This document shows positions 19,932 to 29,916 of a DNA stretch of 64,000 nt, in pieces. The DNA is from Patulibacter minatonensis DSM 18081 (GTDB taxonomy: Bacteria > Actinomycetota > Thermoleophilia > Solirubrobacterales > Solirubrobacteraceae): NCBI RefSeq assembly GCF_000519325.1, contig NZ_KI912613.1:5058171-5122170 (forward strand). Direction: 5' to 3'. Position numbers and translations under genes: made by a program. Each line of letters begins with the position of its first letter. Position 1 is the first letter of the stretch. A model generated the notes under the pieces. It did no database searches. It was not told where the DNA came from and saw only the letters and a program-made list of their open reading frames with translations.

Positions 19932-21995
<2,064 letters not shown>

Positions 21996-22774: not shown

Positions 22775-23122
22775 TCAGTCGGCGTCCTCGAGCAGGAAGA
22801 CCTCGGTCGCCGCGTCGATCGTCGTGCTGTAGCCCGGCACGTGGCCCCGGACCCTGCGCCCGGTCACCTGCTCCACGACGGCGATCATCTCCCCCCGCGC
22901 GTGCTGCTGGAACCGCGCGCGGGCCTCGCGCAGCAGGTCGCGGCCCCCGAGCTGCAGGATCGTCTGCTCGTACGGGGTGTCGGTGTCCTCCAGCACGCAC
23001 AGGACGTGCCCGCCCGAGATCGTCGTCACGACCTTCGTGGGGCCACGACCGATGTGCGCCTTGTACAGCTGGGCGATGGCGTTGGAGATCTCCTGCTGGG
23101 GGACCGCGTGGTGCTCGGACAT
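22775..23122 (-). CDS. DUF2294 (MpsC-type) protein, copy 1
   Basis: 115 aa cytosolic protein of the DUF2294 family, also named MpsC after a membrane-potential-linked system in Staphylococcus. The family signature is clear: QQEISNAIAQLYKAHIGRGP, the strand pair VVTTISGGHVLCVLEDTDTP, LLREARARFQQ, IAVVEQVTGRRV and a final ATEVFLLED. Full length for the family. A paralog lies at 26158-26529, with a sigma factor and several small unknown genes between. The biochemical role of soluble DUF2294 proteins in actinobacteria is not known to me. Confidence 0.8.
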   Translation of the reverse strand: MSEHHAVPQQEISNAIAQLYKAHIGRGPTKVVTTISGGHVLCVLEDTDTPYEQTILQLGGRDLLREARARFQQHARGEMIAVVEQVTGRRVRGHVPGYSTTIDAATEVFLLEDAD

Positions 23123-23229
23123 CTTCGTGGAGTCGTCGGGTGCTCGGGGACTTCGGGCACGCGGATCCTAGGGCAGTGCGGCGGGCCCGCGGCGGCCAGG
23201 ACGCCCCGGCGCGGCCCACCGGCACGCGA

Positions 23230-23514
23230 TCAGTCGTCGCGCAGATCGGTGAGGAACCCCATCACGATCATGCGGGCCTCGTCGATCGCCCGGCGGGCGG
23301 CGAGGACGTCCTGGAGCGCCCAGGCGTGGTTGTAGTGCCGGGCGGTCTCCTCGATCCGGCCCTGGAACGTGGAGATCGCGTCGGTCAGGCCGTCGATGGC
23401 GTCGATCGCGAGGTGCCCGCCGTCGCGGACGGACGACTCGAGGCGGCGGAGGCGGTCCAGCACCGAGTTGGCCTCCATCCGGAGCTCTTCGGGCGTCGAC
23501 GGCCGGTCGGTCAT
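23230..23514 (-). CDS. Small helical protein of unknown function
   Basis: 94 aa, predicted mostly helical (MEANSVLDRLRRLESSVRD, AIDAIDGLTDAISTFQGRI, ALQDVLAARRAIDEARMIV). No Cys, signal peptide or membrane segment. ATG 23514 is chosen; the upstream in-frame extension is low-complexity Arg/Pro. Lies between DUF2294 and other small helical genes of the 22.7-29 kb cluster. Not recognised. Confidence 0.55.
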   Translation of the reverse strand: MTDRPSTPEELRMEANSVLDRLRRLESSVRDGGHLAIDAIDGLTDAISTFQGRIEETARHYNHAWALQDVLAARRAIDEARMIVMGFLTDLRDD

Positions 23515-23679
23515 CGCGCCCCGCCGCGGGGACGACCGAGGACGACCCGCGGGGCCCGCCACGAGGGGCCCGTCACGATCGCTGGTGTGCGCGGCTCCGA
23601 CACGGCACCAGTGCTTCTATCCCTCCCGGAGGCCGGGCGCAAGCGCTGCACGACGGTTGGACCGGCCGGTCCGGACCGG

Positions 23680-23889
23680 TCAGCGTCCGGCGACGCGGTG
23701 CTCGGCGCCGAGGACCGTGCCCTCGACGAGCGTCCGCAGGCGACCGAGGTCCTCGATGACGCGGTGGAGGTCGTCGGTCGCGGGCGGGGTCCCGTCCTCC
23801 CACGCCGCGCAGAGCCCGTGGAGCAGCTCGGAGACCCGATCGGCCTCGGCGCGCAGCTCGCCCCGCACGGGATGGTCGGACCTGGGCAC
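23680..23889 (-). CDS. Small helical protein of unknown function
   Basis: 69 aa from GTG 23889 (VPRSDHPVRGELRAEADRV). Two amphipathic helices (ELRAEADRVSELLHGLCAAW and DLHRVIEDLGRLRTLVEGTV) joined by a short turn. No strong SD is visible, so the start is uncertain. It resembles its neighbours in size and helix-pair layout. Confidence 0.45.
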   Translation of the reverse strand: MPRSDHPVRGELRAEADRVSELLHGLCAAWEDGTPPATDDLHRVIEDLGRLRTLVEGTVLGAEHRVAGR

Positions 23890-24050
23890 GCACGGGAGTG
23901 TACGGGTTCGTACACGTGAACACTCTTCGTTCGATCGTCCTCTCCCGGACACGGACGGGGCCGCTCGCCGTGGACGCGGGCTGGACGTCCCTCCCCGGGC
24001 GCCGCGACGCCGGCCCGCGCGCGACGGACCGGGCGCGACCGAACGCTGGC

Positions 24051-24278
24051 TCAGTGGTGCACGCCGGGGCCGGCCGCGCGACGGCGGTCGGCCTCGACGG
24101 CGGAGCGCGCGATGAACGCCTCGAGCGAGCGCTGGGTCTCCGCCAGCTGCGCCCGGACGCGCTCGATCGACACGACCGCGGCGCGTGCACGGCGGAGCTC
24201 GTCGGAGTCCGGGCGCGCCCCTCGTGGGAGCCGGAGCTCGGTCAGGGTGTGGTGCTCGTCGGCGGTCGGAGCGTGCAT
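24051..24278 (-). CDS. Small helical protein of unknown function
   Basis: 75 aa. After a polar N-terminus, a long helix (SDELRRARAAVVSIERVRAQ then LAETQRSLEAFIARSAV) runs almost to the end. AGAGG lies about 6 bp before ATG 24278 and supports the start. The helix has the same 'R-x-LQ/AQL-x-x-x-Q-x-x-L-x-x-x-I' feel as the 28636-28932 protein. Function unknown. Confidence 0.55.
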   Translation of the reverse strand: MHAPTADEHHTLTELRLPRGARPDSDELRRARAAVVSIERVRAQLAETQRSLEAFIARSAVEADRRRAAGPGVHH

Positions 24279-24465
24279 GGGGGACCTCTGGGCGGGGGGA
24301 ACGGACCGGGGCGACCCGGATCGACGCTGGTCTTCGTCGACGCCATGATGCGCAAGGCCGGGGTGAGCGCGCAAGGTCGCCCAGGGTGATCCTGAACAGC
24401 GTTCCCCCTCGCCCCGTCCGTGGAGGGGCATCCGGCGCCCGGCGGGCACCGTACCTGCCGGTACC

Positions 24466-25152
24466 GTGCCCGTCGTGGAACTCGCCCCTCGCCTGATCGA
24501 GACCGCCGTCCCGGACGATCCCGAGGGCGTCGTCCTCGTGCTGCACGGGGGCGCCGCGCGCGGCGCCGCGAGGGCCGTGAGCCCCTCGCAGCTCTCGGTG
24601 CTGCGAATGGTCCCGATCGCCCGCCGCATCGCCCGCGTCGGTGCGGGACGGCTCGCCGTCTACCGGCTCCTGAACGCGCAGCGGGGCTGGGACGAGGCAC
24701 GGTCGCCCGTCGACGACGCGCAGTGGGCGCTCGACGAGATCGCCCGGCGCCTCGGCGGGCCCCTGCCGGCGTGCCTCGTCGGCCACTCGCTCGGGGGCCG
24801 GGCCGCGCTGATGGCGGCCCATCACGACGCGGTCCGGAGCGCCGTCGCGCTCGCACCGTGGGTCTACGCCTCCGACACCCCTCCCGGCCTCGAGGGCAGG
24901 CGCATCCTCGTCGTGCACGGCGACCAGGACCGGATCGCGCGACGCGAGCCCGCGCTCGAGGTGGCGCGCACCATGGGCCGCTCCACCGAGGTCGGCTTCG
25001 TCACCGTCCGGGGCGGCAAGCACGCGATGCTCCGCCACCACGGCCGGTTCGACGGCCTCGCGGCCGACTTCGCCGGGGCCACCCTGCTCGGCCTGCCGGC
25101 CGGCGACGTGCTCGGGCGCGTCGAGGCCGGGGACCCGGTCGTCGAGGTCTGA
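24466..25152 (+). CDS. Alpha/beta hydrolase (dienelactone-hydrolase/lipase-like)
   Basis: 228 aa, cytosolic. The fold is shown by LVLHGGAARG (oxyanion loop), nucleophile elbow GHSLGG (Ser about residue 109), acid VHGDQD (about residue 155) and His in GGKHAML (about residue 184). The family covers esterases, lipases and similar enzymes; the substrate cannot be read from sequence. GTG 24466 or GTG 24475 are both possible. It points against its small minus-strand neighbours and is the only enzyme in the 22.7-29 kb cluster. Confidence 0.8.
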   Translation: MPVVELAPRLIETAVPDDPEGVVLVLHGGAARGAARAVSPSQLSVLRMVPIARRIARVGAGRLAVYRLLNAQRGWDEARSPVDDAQWALDEIARRLGGPLPACLVGHSLGGRAALMAAHHDAVRSAVALAPWVYASDTPPGLEGRRILVVHGDQDRIARREPALEVARTMGRSTEVGFVTVRGGKHAMLRHHGRFDGLAADFAGATLLGLPAGDVLGRVEAGDPVVEV

Positions 25153-25183
25153 CGGGCCGGCCCCGGCGGGACCGGCCCCTGGG

Positions 25184-25966
25184 TCAGGCCGCCTGCGTCC
25201 GGGCGTCGGCAGCCGCCGCACCGGTGTGCAGCAGGTGGCGGCGCATGTCCTCCAGCGCGCCGGAGACCACCCGCGACACCTGCATCTGCGAGACCCCGAC
25301 GTCGACGGCGATCTCGCGCTGCAGGCGCTCCCGGTAGAAGCGGTCGTGGACGACGCGCCGTGCGCGGTCGTCGAGCACGTCGAACGCCTGCGCGACGACG
25401 CTGCGGTCCTCGACGGTCGCGAACCCCGGGTCGCTGTCCCCCTGGACGTCGAGCATCGCGCGGTCCTCGCCGGCGGGATGGTCGAGCGACAGCGCGTCGT
25501 ACCCCTCCCCCGCGCGGAGCGCGTCGGCGACGTCCTCCTCGGGCACCTCGAGCGCGAGGGCGAGATCCCCGGGCGTGGCGTCGCGGCCGGTGTGCTCGAC
25601 GAAGGCCCGCTGCTCGTGCTTGACGCGCTGCCAGAGCTCCTGGGTGGAGCGCGGGACGCGGACGGCCCAGCAGTGGTCGCGGAAGTGCCGGCGGATCTCC
25701 CCCTGGATCGTCGGGATCGCGTAGGACACGAACCGGTGCCCCGCATCGAGGTCGAAGCGGTCGATCGCCTTCACCAGGCCGATCGAGCCGGCCTGGACCA
25801 GGTCCTCGAACGGCTCGCGGCTCGAGGCGTACTTGCGGGCGATCGAGCGGACGAGCGGCATGCAGCGCTCCGTCAGCTCGTCGCGGGCCCAGGGGTCGCC
25901 CTGGGTGCGGTGACGGCGCAGCAGCTCGAGATCGTGCTGCTCACGTCGGGTTGCGTCTTCCAGCAT
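25184..25966 (-). CDS. SigB/SigF-type alternative sigma factor (group 3)
   Basis: 260 aa. Region 2 (ELTERCMPLVRSIARKYAS, FEDLVQAGSIGLVKAIDRFD, FVSYAIPTIQGEIRRHFRD and VRVPRSTQELWQRV) matches stress/sporulation sigma factors of the SigB/SigF family. Region 3 and region 4.2 follow, the last with DVGVSQMQVSRVVSGALEDM as the -35 recognition helix-turn-helix. GGAG lies 7 nt before ATG 25966. No anti-sigma (RsbW-like) or antagonist (RsbV-like) gene lies beside it in the window, which is unusual. It probably drives a stress or stationary regulon including nearby genes; a GTTT-N16-GGGTAC sequence at 28546-28571 is a candidate target. Confidence 0.9.
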   Translation of the reverse strand: MLEDATRREQHDLELLRRHRTQGDPWARDELTERCMPLVRSIARKYASSREPFEDLVQAGSIGLVKAIDRFDLDAGHRFVSYAIPTIQGEIRRHFRDHCWAVRVPRSTQELWQRVKHEQRAFVEHTGRDATPGDLALALEVPEEDVADALRAGEGYDALSLDHPAGEDRAMLDVQGDSDPGFATVEDRSVVAQAFDVLDDRARRVVHDRFYRERLQREIAVDVGVSQMQVSRVVSGALEDMRRHLLHTGAAAADARTQAA

Positions 25967-26157
25967 GAAGTGCTCCGGGGGAGGGAGTCGGTCTTCCGGC
26001 ACGCATCTCCCGGATCCCGTGGGGGGCCGGAGCACGTGGTGCCTGCTGCTTCTTCGTGCGCGCTGCCAGGCTCCTGGTGACGTCGGGACCGGTGTTCCGG
26101 GGGGAGCAGAACACCAGGCCGCCTCCGCACCGACGGACGGCGAGCACGAGCCCGAGG

Positions 26158-26529
26158 TTACCCGACGCCGGGCCCGCCCACCAGTGCGTCGTCCTGCAGG
26201 AGGAACACCTCGGTGGCCGCGTCGAGGGACGCGCGGTACCCGGGGACGTGCACCCGGACCGACCTGCCGGTCGCGCGCTCGACGATCGCCACGAGCTCCG
26301 GCGTGCACTCGAGCTGGAACCGCGACCGGGCCTCCTGGACGAGGTCCTGGGCGCCGAGCCCGAGGAGCGTCTCCTCGAACGGCGTGTCGGTGTCCTCGAG
26401 GACGCAGACCACGAGGTCGCCGACGATCGTCGTCGACACCTTGGTCGGCCCCCGGCCGAGGCGGGTCTTGTAGAGCTGGGCGATCCGGTTGGAGATCTCC
26501 TGCTGCGGGACGTGGGGGCGATCGGGCAT
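26158..26529 (-). CDS. DUF2294 (MpsC-type) protein, copy 2
   Basis: 123 aa paralog of the 22775-23122 protein: QQEISNRIAQLYKTRLGRGP, VSTTIVGDLVVCVLEDTDTP, LVQEARSRFQLE, VAIVERATGRSV, VHVPGYRASLDAATEVFLLQ. Both share the VHVPGY/GHVPGY-S/AATEVFLL ending. The start is ATG 26529; longer frames upstream are not conserved with copy 1. It lies directly upstream of the sigma gene in the same direction, with about 190 bp between, so it may have its own promoter. Confidence 0.8.
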   Translation of the reverse strand: MPDRPHVPQQEISNRIAQLYKTRLGRGPTKVSTTIVGDLVVCVLEDTDTPFEETLLGLGAQDLVQEARSRFQLECTPELVAIVERATGRSVRVHVPGYRASLDAATEVFLLQDDALVGGPGVG

Positions 26530-26754
26530 CGCGAGCTTCGGCCTCGAGGGGTGCGTCGACAGGGTGGTCCTCACCGCCGAGCGCCCCGTCGCATGTACGG
26601 AGCACCCCCTCGTGGGCACATCGTCCGAGGTCCTCCAGCAACTCCCGCGGGAGCGCGGGGCGACCCCGTGCTGCGCATACGGTAGCCACCCGGGCGCCCG
26701 GACGACCGCAGACCACCGGCGGACGACCGGGGCCCGGGGCGGCCGGAGGCCCGT

Positions 26755-26949
26755 CTACCTGCGGTCCGGCGGCGTCGGCCGGTCGTCGCCGCCGGCCCGG
26801 GACCCGTTCCCGGCGTCGTCCAGCAGCTGCTCGGCGGCCTCGAGCTCGCCGCGCAGACGCTTGAGCGCGCGCAGCCGCTCGGCGGCGGCCGGGTCCTCGT
26901 GCTCGCCCTCCCGCCCGCGCTCCGCGCCCGGGTGCTGGTCGGAGATCAT
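26755..26949 (-). CDS. Very small helical protein of unknown function
   Basis: 64 aa. Polar ends and a central helix (AERLRALKRLRGELEAAEQL) that could be a coiled coil. ATG 26949 is the only start close to it. No recognisable family. The 26950-27322 stretch upstream holds no gene, only the palindrome and hairpin listed at 27028-27081. Confidence 0.45.
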   Translation of the reverse strand: MISDQHPGAERGREGEHEDPAAAERLRALKRLRGELEAAEQLLDDAGNGSRAGGDDRPTPPDRR

Positions 26950-27027
26950 CGGCGGTCTGCCCGGGGTGCGCGGATCATGGGGTCCTTCGTGGGAGTGGGC
27001 ACGGGCCGTGGCGGTCCCCGTGGTGCC

Positions 27028-27081
27028 GGGCCGCCGACGGTCGTGCGCCGGCGGCCCGTCGCGTCGGCGATGGGGTACCCC
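27028..27081. other. Hairpin plus GGGGTACCCC palindrome in a 373-bp gene-free gap
   Basis: GGGCCGCCG (27028-27036) pairs with CGGCGGCCC (27049-27057). The 10-bp palindrome GGGGTACCCC lies at 27072-27081. Read toward the 26949 gene, the palindrome could overlap a -10 element (GGGTA) and the hairpin would be in the leader. Read toward 27323 both would be upstream elements. No function is proven. Confidence 0.3.
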
Positions 27082-27322
27082 GTAGTCGGACCACCCGGGC
27101 CGATCCCCCCCTCCCGATCCGCGAGGTCGGGGCGCGGGCCCGTGCGGCGCTCGCGGTGCCCGCACCGGCGTCGCCCGTATCCACCCCGACACCCCGGCGA
27201 TACCGGTCTGCAATGCGGGTGGCGCACCATGGACCCATGGAATCCCGCGACGCCGCCTCCGGCCCCGTGCCGACGAGCTCCCGGCGCTCGCGTCCCGTTC
27301 CCTGTGCCCCGGAGGCCTCGTC

Positions 27323-27835
27323 GTGCTGATCGAATCCGCCACGTCCACCGCTCCGACGACGCTCGCGCCGTCGGACGACCGGGCTCTGGCGTCCACCGCG
27401 CGGCACGAGGCCGTCGTCGGCCGCGACAGCACGTTCGACCGGGCCGCGCGGGCCATCGACGCCCTCGACGAGCTGGCGCGTCGCCGGCGCTCGCAGGAGC
27501 TCGTCCTCGCGCTGGAGCGCCTCGGCGCCGGCCTCGACTCGGCCATCGGCGCCCTCGACCAGGCCGTCGCACCGTCGACCACCGCACGCGCGCTGCCCAC
27601 GCCGGCGCCGAAGGCGACGTGGACGCCCATCTCGACGCCGGTGGTCCCGATCACCGCGCACGTGCCGATGCAGGCCGTCGCCGCTCCCGCCCCCGTGGCC
27701 GCCGCGCCGACCGCGCCGCGCGTCCCGGCCGCGACGGTCCCGGCCGTCGCCGCGGAGCCGAAGCGCCCGATGCGGCAGGCCCCGGCGGGCCTGGCGGCCC
27801 ACGTCATCGACTTCTCGGAGCAGGTCGTCGCCTGA
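27323..27835 (+). CDS. Small protein with helical N-terminus and AGLAAHVIDF C-terminal motif
   Basis: 170 aa. A helical N-terminal half (AARAIDALDELARRRRSQEL, LERLGAGLDSAIGALDQAV), a Pro/Ala-rich linker, and a short C-terminal motif PAGLAAHVIDFSEQVV. GGAGG lies 8 nt before GTG 27323. The convergent neighbour (27920-28510) ends in a similar PAALAEHVVDLRVAV, pointing to common ancestry or a shared docking peptide. No known family recognised. Confidence 0.6.
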   Translation: MLIESATSTAPTTLAPSDDRALASTARHEAVVGRDSTFDRAARAIDALDELARRRRSQELVLALERLGAGLDSAIGALDQAVAPSTTARALPTPAPKATWTPISTPVVPITAHVPMQAVAAPAPVAAAPTAPRVPAATVPAVAAEPKRPMRQAPAGLAAHVIDFSEQVVA

Positions 27836-27919
27836 CCAGGAGGCGGTCGTCGACCGCGCGCCGGGGACCCCGGGAGGCCGCGGCACCCGACGGACCCGGC
27901 GGGGCGACGCCGGACGCCG

Positions 27920-28510
27920 TCAGGCCGGGGCGTCGCGCTGAGCCGTCGCCGCGCTCGCCCGCAGACGGGCCTCCGGCACGGCGACCCGGAGGTCGACCAC
28001 GTGCTCGGCCAGTGCGGCCGGCGCCAGGGCCGCCATCCCGGAGGGGAGCTCGGGGACGACCTCGGTGGGCTCGGGCGGCAGGCTCCTGCCCCTGGCGGTC
28101 CGGCGCCCGGACACCAGGACCGGCCGGGGATCGTCGCGGACCTCCGCCGTCGGCGCCTCCGCCGGACGGGACCCCGGCACGACCGGGACGCCCATCGAGC
28201 CCACGACGTCGGCGAGGGTCCTCCGGGTGCGCTCGAGCTGGGCGAGCGTCGCGTCGAGGACCGCCAGGACCCGTCGGGCGTCCTCGACGCTCATCGCGGG
28301 CGCCGCACCGATCCCGGGCTCCCGGAGGGCGGGGACGACCTCGTGCGACGCCGTCGTCGCGCCCCGGATCGACCGGCGCAGCGCCGCCCGTGCCGCTGCG
28401 GGCGCACCGCCCTCGACCGACCGACGGGCTCCGGGGGACCGCGCGGGGCGACCGTCGCGGACGGCGGGGGTGACGGTGGCGCGTGCGAGCTGCTCTGGGA
28501 GGGGGGACAC
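27920..28510 (-). CDS. Small protein with central helix and AALAEHVVDL C-terminal motif
   Basis: 196 aa from GTG 28510, which has GGAGG 6 nt upstream. Polar, Arg/Pro-rich N-terminus; a helix AMSVEDARRVLAVLDATLAQ then LERTRRTLADVVGSM; a Pro-rich linker; and the C-terminal PAALAEHVVDLRVAV shared with its convergent neighbour at 27323-27835. A SigF-like promoter sequence lies 36-61 bp upstream. Function unknown. Confidence 0.6.
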   Translation of the reverse strand: MSPLPEQLARATVTPAVRDGRPARSPGARRSVEGGAPAAARAALRRSIRGATTASHEVVPALREPGIGAAPAMSVEDARRVLAVLDATLAQLERTRRTLADVVGSMGVPVVPGSRPAEAPTAEVRDDPRPVLVSGRRTARGRSLPPEPTEVVPELPSGMAALAPAALAEHVVDLRVAVPEARLRASAATAQRDAPA

Positions 28511-28545
28511 GTCATCCTCCGGGTGCTGTTCCGGGCGCGGGGCTC

Positions 28546-28571
28546 GTACCCGCGCGCCCACCGGACGAAAC
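28546..28571 (-). promoter_or_regulatory. SigB/SigF-like promoter before the 28510 gene
   Basis: On the minus strand GTTT (28571-28568) is followed by 16 nt and GGGTAC (28551-28546), close to the GTTT-N14-16-GGGTAT consensus for SigB/SigF-type sigma factors. The -10 lies 36 bp before the start. The match is seen; use by the sigma factor at 25184 is inference. Confidence 0.45.
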
Positions 28572-28635
28572 CGCGACCGACGCCGCCCAGTGACCGCTCG
28601 TCCGACGGCGCGGACGTCGCCGGGCCGTGGCGCGA

Positions 28636-28932
28636 TCAGCGTCGGGCATCGCCCCCGCTGGCCACCCGGACCTCGGTGATCACCTCGTCGAGCGCCTGCT
28701 GCGCGGCGCCGAGCGTCGCCTGCAGGCGACGCAGCGCGTCGACGGTCCGCAGGAGCCGGGCGGTGTCGGCGTCGTCCACGGGACGACGCGGAGCGTGGAC
28801 GGCGGGCGCCGGGATCGGCAGGGACGCGTCGGCCCGGGCGCCCCGTCGCGCCGGCGCCGTCACGGCCGTGAGCCGGTGGGCGTCGAGCGAGGACGGGACG
28901 GGGAGCGGTGCGGGACCGCGACGATCAGACAT
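28636..28932 (-). CDS. Small helical protein of unknown function
   Basis: 98 aa. N-terminal half is Pro/Ala/Arg-rich; the C-terminal half is one long amphipathic helix (DTARLLRTVDALRRLQATLG, AAQQALDEVITEVRV). GAGG lies before ATG 28932. The helix resembles those of the other small genes in this block. The upstream gap (28933-29079) has an inverted repeat listed separately. Confidence 0.55.
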   Translation of the reverse strand: MSDRRGPAPLPVPSSLDAHRLTAVTAPARRGARADASLPIPAPAVHAPRRPVDDADTARLLRTVDALRRLQATLGAAQQALDEVITEVRVASGGDARR

Positions 28933-28997
28933 ACGGGACCTCGGGGAAGGACGAACGGACCGGATGAGGACCCATCGGCAGACGGGCGCTGGTCCTT

Positions 28998-29009
28998 TAC
29001 ACCAGTGTA
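28998..29009. promoter_or_regulatory. TACAC-CA-GTGTA inverted repeat
   Basis: TACAC (28998-29002), 2 nt, GTGTA (29005-29009). On the minus strand TACACT could be a -10 box for the 28932 gene, so a repressor site overlapping a promoter is plausible. Confidence 0.3.
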
Positions 29010-29079
29010 GGAAGTCGGCGTGTGACCGTCGACCCCGTTCCCGGGGAGGCGGGCAGCACCGGCCACGGCCCGGACCGCG

Positions 29080-29916
29080 TCAGACCGGCGCGACGAGCGC
29101 GCGGGACCGCGCGGCCCGGGCGTGCTCGACGACCTCGAACACGAACCACCGGGGCTCGCCGTCCCCCGCACGGACGAGCGACACCTCGACGCGCACCGGG
29201 AGCACCTCGCCGTCCGCGGCGATCCACCGGGTCTCGAGCGACCACCCGTCCCGGGCACCGTCGAGCGCCTCCCGGACCAGGACGTGGCCGGCGCCGAGGT
29301 CGTCGGGGTGCGTCAGCTCCTGCAGGTCGCAGCGCAGCAGCGTGGCCTCGTCCCGGCGGAGGAGCCGGCAGAGGCGTCGGTTCACGCGGAGCCACCGGCC
29401 GTCGGTCGAGATCAGCGCCTTGGCGACGGGCGCGTGGGCGAAGGAGAGCTCGAGGAGCTCCCCCGGCTCGGCGGGGATCAGCCGTTCGCGGCGGCCGGCG
29501 AGCAGCTCGCGGCTCACCACCATCGTGGGCGCGGCGCGCTGGGGGACGTGCCGCTCGATCCCCGCCGAGGTCGTGGTCGGAGCGGGATCCTCGTCCTCCT
29601 CCCACGTCGCGTCGACGGCGTCGTCCTGCGGGGCGACGTCGTCGGCCGGGTGGTCGGTGGACTCCGCGAGCACGACCTCGAGGCGCTCCCCGACGATCCC
29701 GCAGGACCGCAGCCCGCCCCCGAGCTGGTCGCGCAGGGCGCCCGCGAGGTCCAGCGGGTGCTGTGCGTGCACCGTGAGCAGCACGCGGCGTCCGACGAAC
29801 GCCTCGACCGCGACCGCGCCGACGCCGGGCACGCGCTCGAGCAGGTCGACGGTCCGGTCGAGCTGGTCGAGGTCGCGGAGCGGCCCGACCGCGACGCGGG
29901 AGGCGCCGATGATCAT
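29080..29916 (-). CDS. PAS-domain protein
   Basis: 278 aa. The N-terminal about 80 residues form a ferredoxin-like alpha-beta segment (VDLLERVPGVGAVAVEAFVG, RRVLLTVHAQHPLDLAGAL); an acidic linker follows; residues about 150-265 are a PAS fold (LSFAHAPVAKALISTDGRWL, LLRRDEATLL, LTHPDDL, WIAADGEVLPVRVEVSL, WFVFEVVEHA). No kinase, cyclase or HTH output domain is present, so it would signal by protein contact. It ends the small-protein cluster on its right side. Sensor role inferred from the PAS domain. Confidence 0.7.
   Translation of the reverse strand: MIIGASRVAVGPLRDLDQLDRTVDLLERVPGVGAVAVEAFVGRRVLLTVHAQHPLDLAGALRDQLGGGLRSCGIVGERLEVVLAESTDHPADDVAPQDDAVDATWEEDEDPAPTTTSAGIERHVPQRAAPTMVVSRELLAGRRERLIPAEPGELLELSFAHAPVAKALISTDGRWLRVNRRLCRLLRRDEATLLRCDLQELTHPDDLGAGHVLVREALDGARDGWSLETRWIAADGEVLPVRVEVSLVRAGDGEPRWFVFEVVEHARAARSRALVAPV

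What the first reader, a model, noticed from the sequence alone, without database searches (positions are those of the whole stretch)
22775..29916. Cluster of small unknown helical proteins around a SigF-type sigma factor and twin DUF2294 genes
Seven short products (23230, 23680, 24051, 26755, 27323, 27920, 28636) are mostly Pro/Ala-rich ends plus one or two amphipathic helices. They are interspersed with a sigma factor, two DUF2294 paralogs, an alpha/beta hydrolase and a PAS protein. None of the small ones matches a family I know, and their shared style suggests a common origin or a common assembly (for example a stress-induced complex).
Basis: partly seen in the sequence, partly recalled or inferred. 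Interest (0 to 1): 0.66.

Follow-up and report, generated by a model that had tools for sequence, protein, structure and literature searches.

The report
Two clade-restricted helical small-protein families
A cluster of seven tiny genes in an actinobacterium belongs to two previously unnamed protein families that occur in many copies in only a few related species, often side by side, and one of them carries a recurring eight-letter tail peptide that looks like a docking tag.

Summary
The seven small genes are real but are not one family. Two (23230, 23680) belong to family A, a predicted three-helix bundle. One (24051) belongs clearly to family B, a heptad helix; 27323 and 27920 fit B by helix plus tail motif; 26755 and 28636 fit weakly. 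This genome (a Patulibacter) has 13 A and 10 B copies. Both families are strong in the same 3 of 8 genus genomes and in no other of 121 family genomes searched. A and B genes are often neighbours. Long B proteins end in a Pro/Ala-rich, predicted-disordered tail with 1-2 copies of P-x-x-L-A-x-H-V-like peptides (12 of 27 proteins; shuffles 0.05). Sigma, DUF2294, hydrolase and PAS neighbours are confirmed. No shared promoter was found, and the link of A to SigF-type genes holds here but not at 12 sigma loci of the two other carriers, so a SigF-driven stress complex is unproven. Best guess: paired coiled-coil adaptors that dock on an unknown hub through the tail peptide. No library tested names either family (a few sub-threshold hits only). 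Interest is moderate: unusual families, function open.

The parts
23230..23514 (-). s1, family A, 94 aa, predicted three-helix bundle
   Evidence: held-out profile E 4.4e-24; model pLDDT 89.1, pTM 0.77, helices 8-30, 37-60, 64-93; orthologs 66% and 65% identical in G007 and G002
23680..23889 (-). s2, short family A (two-helix form), 69 aa, GTG start
   Evidence: held-out profile E 1.4e-4; short-A profile with six other members
24051..24278 (-). s3, family B helix without the tail motif, 75 aa
   Evidence: held-out profile E 3.4e-12; codon log-odds 12.8
26755..26949 (-). s4, tentative family B, 64 aa, no tail motif
   Evidence: held-out profile E 0.05 only
27323..27835 (+). s5, family B: 71-residue helix, Pro/Ala-rich tail, docking-like peptide PAGLAAHV near the C-terminus
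   Evidence: held-out profile E 5.3e-6, 0.008 when its ortholog is also left out; single-sequence model: helix 15-85 then no structure; tail motif
27920..28294 (-). s6, family B by tail motif PAALAEHV plus a weak helix match, 124 aa from the ATG at 28294
   Evidence: tail motif; helix E 0.29 held out
28636..28932 (-). s7, tentative family B, 98 aa
   Evidence: held-out E 0.03, not found when the s5 ortholog is left out too; lowest codon score of the six scored with the right start
22775..23122 (-). MpsC/DUF2294 copy a (neighbour)
   Evidence: PF10057 69.4 bits
26158..26529 (-). MpsC/DUF2294 copy b (neighbour); a divergent s5-DUF2294 arrangement recurs in G007 and G002
   Evidence: PF10057 73.2 bits in the genome search; gene order in L022, L093
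25184..25966 (-). SigB/F/G-type sigma factor (neighbour)
   Evidence: TIGR02980 235.6 bits, cut-off 234.35
24466..25152 (+). alpha/beta hydrolase (neighbour); homologs beside A/B loci in L011 and L022
   Evidence: Hydrolase_4 36.6 bits, cut-off 27
29080..29916 (-). PAS protein with an unnamed N-terminal domain (neighbour)
   Evidence: PF00989 34.4 bits; a relative of its N-terminal part is a separate 82-aa gene beside a weak B gene in L088

Best explanation
The small genes are members of two undescribed, clade-restricted, multi-copy families. Shown by computation: A is a predicted three-helix bundle; B is a heptad helix, and its long members carry a predicted-disordered Pro/Ala tail with one or two P-x-x-L-A-x-H-V-type peptides; A and B share species distribution and are frequent neighbours. 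Inferred: A and B helices pair through their coiled-coil faces, and the tail peptide docks onto one unknown common hub protein, so that A/B pairs act as adaptors or scaffolds. Several loci also hold stress or redox genes (peroxiredoxin, glutathione peroxidase, Usp, DUF892, DUF2294/SigF), so a stress-related role is a reasonable but untested guess.
For: 13 A and 10 B copies in this genome, 6 and 8 in G002, 5 and 7 in G007. B helix: Leu/Ile/Val/Met/Phe-type residues at columns 19, 22, 26, 33 (24, 23, 24, 24 of 24) and Thr or Ala at 29 (24 of 24), 3-4 spacing. Tail motif in 12 of 27 B proteins, 16 occurrences; shuffled tails give mean 0.05, maximum 2 in 5,000 rounds; the motif as read from s5/s6 is found in 7 of 23 others, shuffles mean 0.01, maximum 1. 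Motif positions are more conserved than linker between orthologs (7 of 8 against 37 of 78; 11 of 16 against 69 of 143). A within 1.5 kb of B: 4 of 13 here, 14 of 20,000 circular shifts reach it; within 1 kb 4 of 5 in G007 and 2 of 6 in G002, about 0.02 expected each. Model of A, long helix plus unstructured tail of s5. Neighbour families.
Against: 9 of 13 A genes here have no B within 1.5 kb and 8 of 13 none within 6 kb, so a fixed A-B pair is not universal. Twelve of the 27 B proteins have tails under 30 aa and lack the motif; s4, s6 and s7 match the helix only weakly. No hub was identified. As DNA the motif is not enriched genome-wide (14 hits, 22 for the reversed control). No common promoter. 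The regular expression was written after seeing the sequences, and orthologs are not independent. The fold search gives only generic helical bundles.
Confidence: 0.4

Rival explanations
1. One reading: the block is a stress-induced complex run by the SigF-type sigma factor.
For: 5 of 13 A genes (4 loci) lie within 3 kb of one of the 8 strongest SigB/F/G genes here; 10 of 20,000 shifts reach that. Stress-type neighbours at several loci.
Against: No A or B gene at 12 SigF loci fetched from G002 (8) and G007 (4) (draft contigs, some short). B is near a SigF gene at one locus only. SigF-type promoter pattern in 1 of 50 A/B upstream stretches, 9 of 386 others; a two-block motif search does no better than random gene sets.
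Confidence: 0.2
2. The small proteins are anti-sigma factors of the RsiG kind (coiled-coil proteins that bind WhiG-type sigma with c-di-GMP, reported in Patulibacter medicamentivorans).
For: Small coiled-coil proteins beside a WhiG-related sigma gene; single-motif RsiGs exist in this class (PMC8325347, passages read).
Against: The c-di-GMP signature E(X)3S(X)2R(X)3[Q/H](X)3D (Ser or Thr allowed) is in 0 of 51 A/B ORFs; no sigma gene beside most A/B loci.
Confidence: 0.08
3. A/B are a toxin-antitoxin or other mobile two-gene module.
For: Small adjacent genes in many copies.
Against: No match in PADLOC or PHROGs, none in phage, plasmid or viral collections with s1 or its trio; orthologous loci keep gene order between species (L083/L102, L026/L099, L086/L101); many A genes stand alone.
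Confidence: 0.07
4. Unrelated short low-complexity ORFs of a 75% GC genome, alike by composition only.
For: s4, s6, s7 match the B helix weakly when held out; s7 has weak codon bias.
Against: A reversed-profile control finds none of the five; tail motif far above shuffles; purifying selection in 12 of 15 comparisons.
Confidence: 0.1

Closest known systems
MpsC / DUF2294 (PF10057)
   Same: The twin neighbours are members; 10 copies in this genome, often near SigB/F/G genes in this taxonomic family, also in genomes without A/B
   Different: The small proteins themselves are not MpsC; the role of MpsC here is unknown
SigB/SigF/SigG sigma factors (TIGR02980)
   Same: 25184-25966 is one; 17 matches of all strengths in this genome
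   Different: The link of A to these genes holds in one genome only
RsiG anti-sigma factors (PMC8325347)
   Same: Small coiled-coil proteins in the same class, one block beside a related sigma gene
   Different: The signature is found in 0 of 51 A/B ORFs
Adaptors with a coiled coil and a disordered tail bearing a docking peptide (general kind, recalled)
   Same: Layout of the long family B members
   Different: Motif, partner and families undescribed; no hub known
DUF6187 (PF19685)
   Same: One A member (L099) scores 19.9 bits
   Different: Below the cut-off of 25; 1 of 15 members only

Membership tests
MpsC/DUF2294 | PF10057 above curated cut-off | tested here: met
   genes at 22775 and 26158
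SigB/F/G sigma factor | TIGR02980 above cut-off; regions 2, 3, 4 | tested here: met
   235.6 against 234.35 bits; Pfam r2, r3, r4
RsiG | c-di-GMP signature E(X)3S(X)2R(X)3[Q/H](X)3D | tested here: not met
   0 of 51 A/B ORFs
RsiG | binds a WhiG-type sigma factor | not testable with these tools
   needs protein work
Family A (new) | found by a profile built without it | tested here: met
   s1 4.4e-24, s2 1.4e-4
Family B (new) | heptad helix found by a profile built without window members | tested here: inconclusive
   met for s3 and s5; weak for s7, s4, s6
Family B (new), long form | tail peptide P-x-x-L-x-x-[HFY]-[VLI] | tested here: inconclusive
   s5 and s6 have it; s3, s4, s7 have tails of 14, 13, 7 aa after the helix and lack it
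Anti-phage defence module | match to PADLOC models | tested here: not met
   0 of 7 small proteins
SigF regulon | SigF-type promoter upstream | tested here: not met
   1 of 50 A/B against 9 of 386 others; the pattern is recalled from other actinobacteria and may not hold here

The most novel reading that the evidence does not exclude
Family B is the readable half of a clade-specific bacterial docking network: 25 B genes over three genomes, many beside stress and redox genes and often paired with an A bundle, bring their local clients to one shared hub or condensate through a new P-x-x-L-A-x-H-V peptide.
Probability: 0.15. Interest if true: 0.8.

Novelty: new variant of a known kind. Interest (0 to 1): 0.5.

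Why it matters
Lineage-specific small proteins are common, but these come as two co-distributed, repeatedly neighbouring families, one of which carries a statistically clear short docking-like peptide. If the peptide has a single partner, one pull-down would reveal a bacterial motif-and-hub system and give a function to dozens of orphan genes at once. If it has none, the case still shows how a small-protein repertoire expands within part of one genus.

Tried and rejected
Promoter search: k-mer and dyad enrichment, ortholog upstream alignments, listing of an enriched hexamer, pattern counts and a two-block EM search against 14 random gene sets: nothing above background. Homology between A and B by hhalign: none. 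Fold search of A in PDB: 257 matches at E<=10, none at 0.001, generic bundles. PDB sequence search: the A profile hits designed coiled coils and heptad proteins, best E 2.2e-5 to a designed coiled coil, read as compositional; B none below 0.26. Motif as DNA pattern: 14 hits, 22 for the control; four are B genes, one further small ORF at G000:1704144 has PPGLAAHV but is not called as a gene. Rfam on the window, L026 and L176: three tRNAs, none in the window. Papers: DUF2294 plus sigma factor 0 papers, DUF2294 alone 1 unrelated; a MpsC/DUF2294 listing was mostly noise; for mpsABC only the listing and abstract starts were seen; Patulibacter with small proteins 1 paper, with genome and sigma factor 3; a motif listing. 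Of these only PMC8325347 was opened, as passages by search term.

Weak database hits rejected as chance: DUF6187 (1 of 15 A members), HalX (1 of 24 B segments). G079, G148 and G224, single borderline A hits (2.8e-4 to 5.5e-4), are treated as chance.
Full report
What is there. The window is G000:C1:5058171-5122170 of a 5.52 Mb single-contig genome. The seven small proteins match no PHROGs or PADLOC family at E 0.01 and pass no Pfam or NCBIfam cut-off.

Two families, not one. Pairwise search among genes of the window and 11 fetched regions linked 23230 to paralogs elsewhere and 24051 to one. Profiles built from these found 13 family A genes here, 6 in G002 and 5 in G007, and 10, 8 and 7 family B genes at E<=0.001. 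With all window members left out, A finds s1 (4.4e-24) and s2 (1.4e-4); B finds s3 (3.4e-12), s5 (5.3e-6), s7 (0.03), s4 (0.05) and s6 (0.29) as its five best of 768 window ORFs, and a reversed profile finds none of them. When the s5 ortholog is left out as well, s5 falls to 0.008, s4 stays at 0.06, and s6 and s7 are not found. So s1, s2 and s3 are firm, s5 and s6 are supported by the tail motif as well, s4 and s7 are tentative. hhalign sees no homology between A and B.

Distribution. B: 3 of 121 genomes of the taxonomic family. A: 4 of 121, the fourth a single hit at 5.5e-4 with an internal stop. Within the genus both are in the same 3 of 8. In 296 genomes across the phylum A is strong only here, with two single borderline hits elsewhere; that search lists no match in the other two carriers, which were presumably not drawn, and it scored at most 17 first-look candidates per genome. 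Nothing in phages, plasmids or viral contigs with s1 or its trio. 'Absent' means below these thresholds.

Anatomy. A: the s1 model from three sequences has pLDDT 89.1, pTM 0.77 and helices 8-30, 37-60, 64-93. A short two-helix form exists in seven genes including s2. B: alignment A4 shows a 3-4 hydrophobic repeat with invariant Leu at column 26, Leu or Met at 33 and Thr or Ala at 29 in 24 of 24 rows. s5 is predicted, from one sequence, as one helix 15-85 followed by an unstructured tail (mean pLDDT 69.4, pTM 0.33).

The tail peptide. Reading the ORFs to their stops showed PAGLAAHV, PAALAEHV, PAGLADHV, PASLADHV and the like. P-x-x-[LI]-[AVDGS]-x-[HFY]-[VLI] occurs in 12 of 27 B proteins, 16 times; shuffled tails give 0.05 on average. 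Fifteen tails have 30 residues or more; the three without a match are a weak B member, one with a near-variant, and one cut by a contig end. Among 415 other called genes (122,781 aa) 10 matches occur, 3 in Pro-rich context: two are a B protein called in a longer frame, one a predicted membrane protein. The pattern was formulated after inspection; the hold-out version (7 of 23, shuffles 0.01) is the fairer test, though orthologs remain among the 23.

Neighbourhoods. A lies within 1.5 kb of B at 4 of 13 genes here, three loci (14 of 20,000 shifts reach this), at 4 of 5 in G007 and 2 of 6 in G002 within 1 kb. Gene order is kept between species at several loci. Neighbours include peroxiredoxin, glutathione peroxidase with DUF3072, Usp, PRC/DUF2382, DUF6458, DUF892 and an ANTAR regulator; I did not test whether such genes are over-represented. 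A near SigB/F/G: 5 of 13 here (10 of 20,000 shifts), but no A/B gene at the 12 such loci fetched from G002 and G007. At the glutathione peroxidase locus G004 keeps flanking blocks but lacks A/B.

Selection and expression. NG86 dN/dS is below 0.7 in 12 of 15 A/B comparisons and about 1.0-1.1 in three. No common promoter was found. There are no expression data.

Interpretation. The best-supported picture is a lineage-specific set of coiled-coil adaptors: A bundles and B helices probably pair, and B tails probably dock on a shared partner. Only the anatomy and the statistics are shown; pairing, docking and any stress role are inferred. The RsiG reading was tested by its signature and not met (0 of 51). 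The novelty rating rests on this: the families and the peptide are undescribed in the libraries tested, but the layout, a coiled coil plus a disordered tail with a short peptide, is a known kind (recalled).

Noticed in passing
window 29080-29916 (N-terminal part) and L088:6351-6599: The N-terminal part of the PAS protein recurs as an 82-aa stand-alone protein beside a weak family B gene; no Pfam match.
   Followed up: partly
whole genome and relatives: MpsC/DUF2294 is amplified (10 copies here, 20 in G002, 14 in G007, 9 in G001) and repeatedly lies beside SigB/F/G genes, also in genomes without A/B.
   Followed up: partly
L153:7000-7275 (G000:C1:1704000-1704275): A small ORF, not called as a gene, carries PPGLAAHV in a Pro/Gly-rich stretch.
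   Followed up: no
window 27323-27835, L022:1006-1548, L093:1-380: s5 orthologs share a second conserved tail peptide, W-x-PIS-x-P-x-VPITA-[H/F/Y]-V.
   Followed up: no
window 19932-21995: FtsH-like AAA+ protease with an HEASH motif directly beside the block (sequence read only, no profile run).
   Followed up: no
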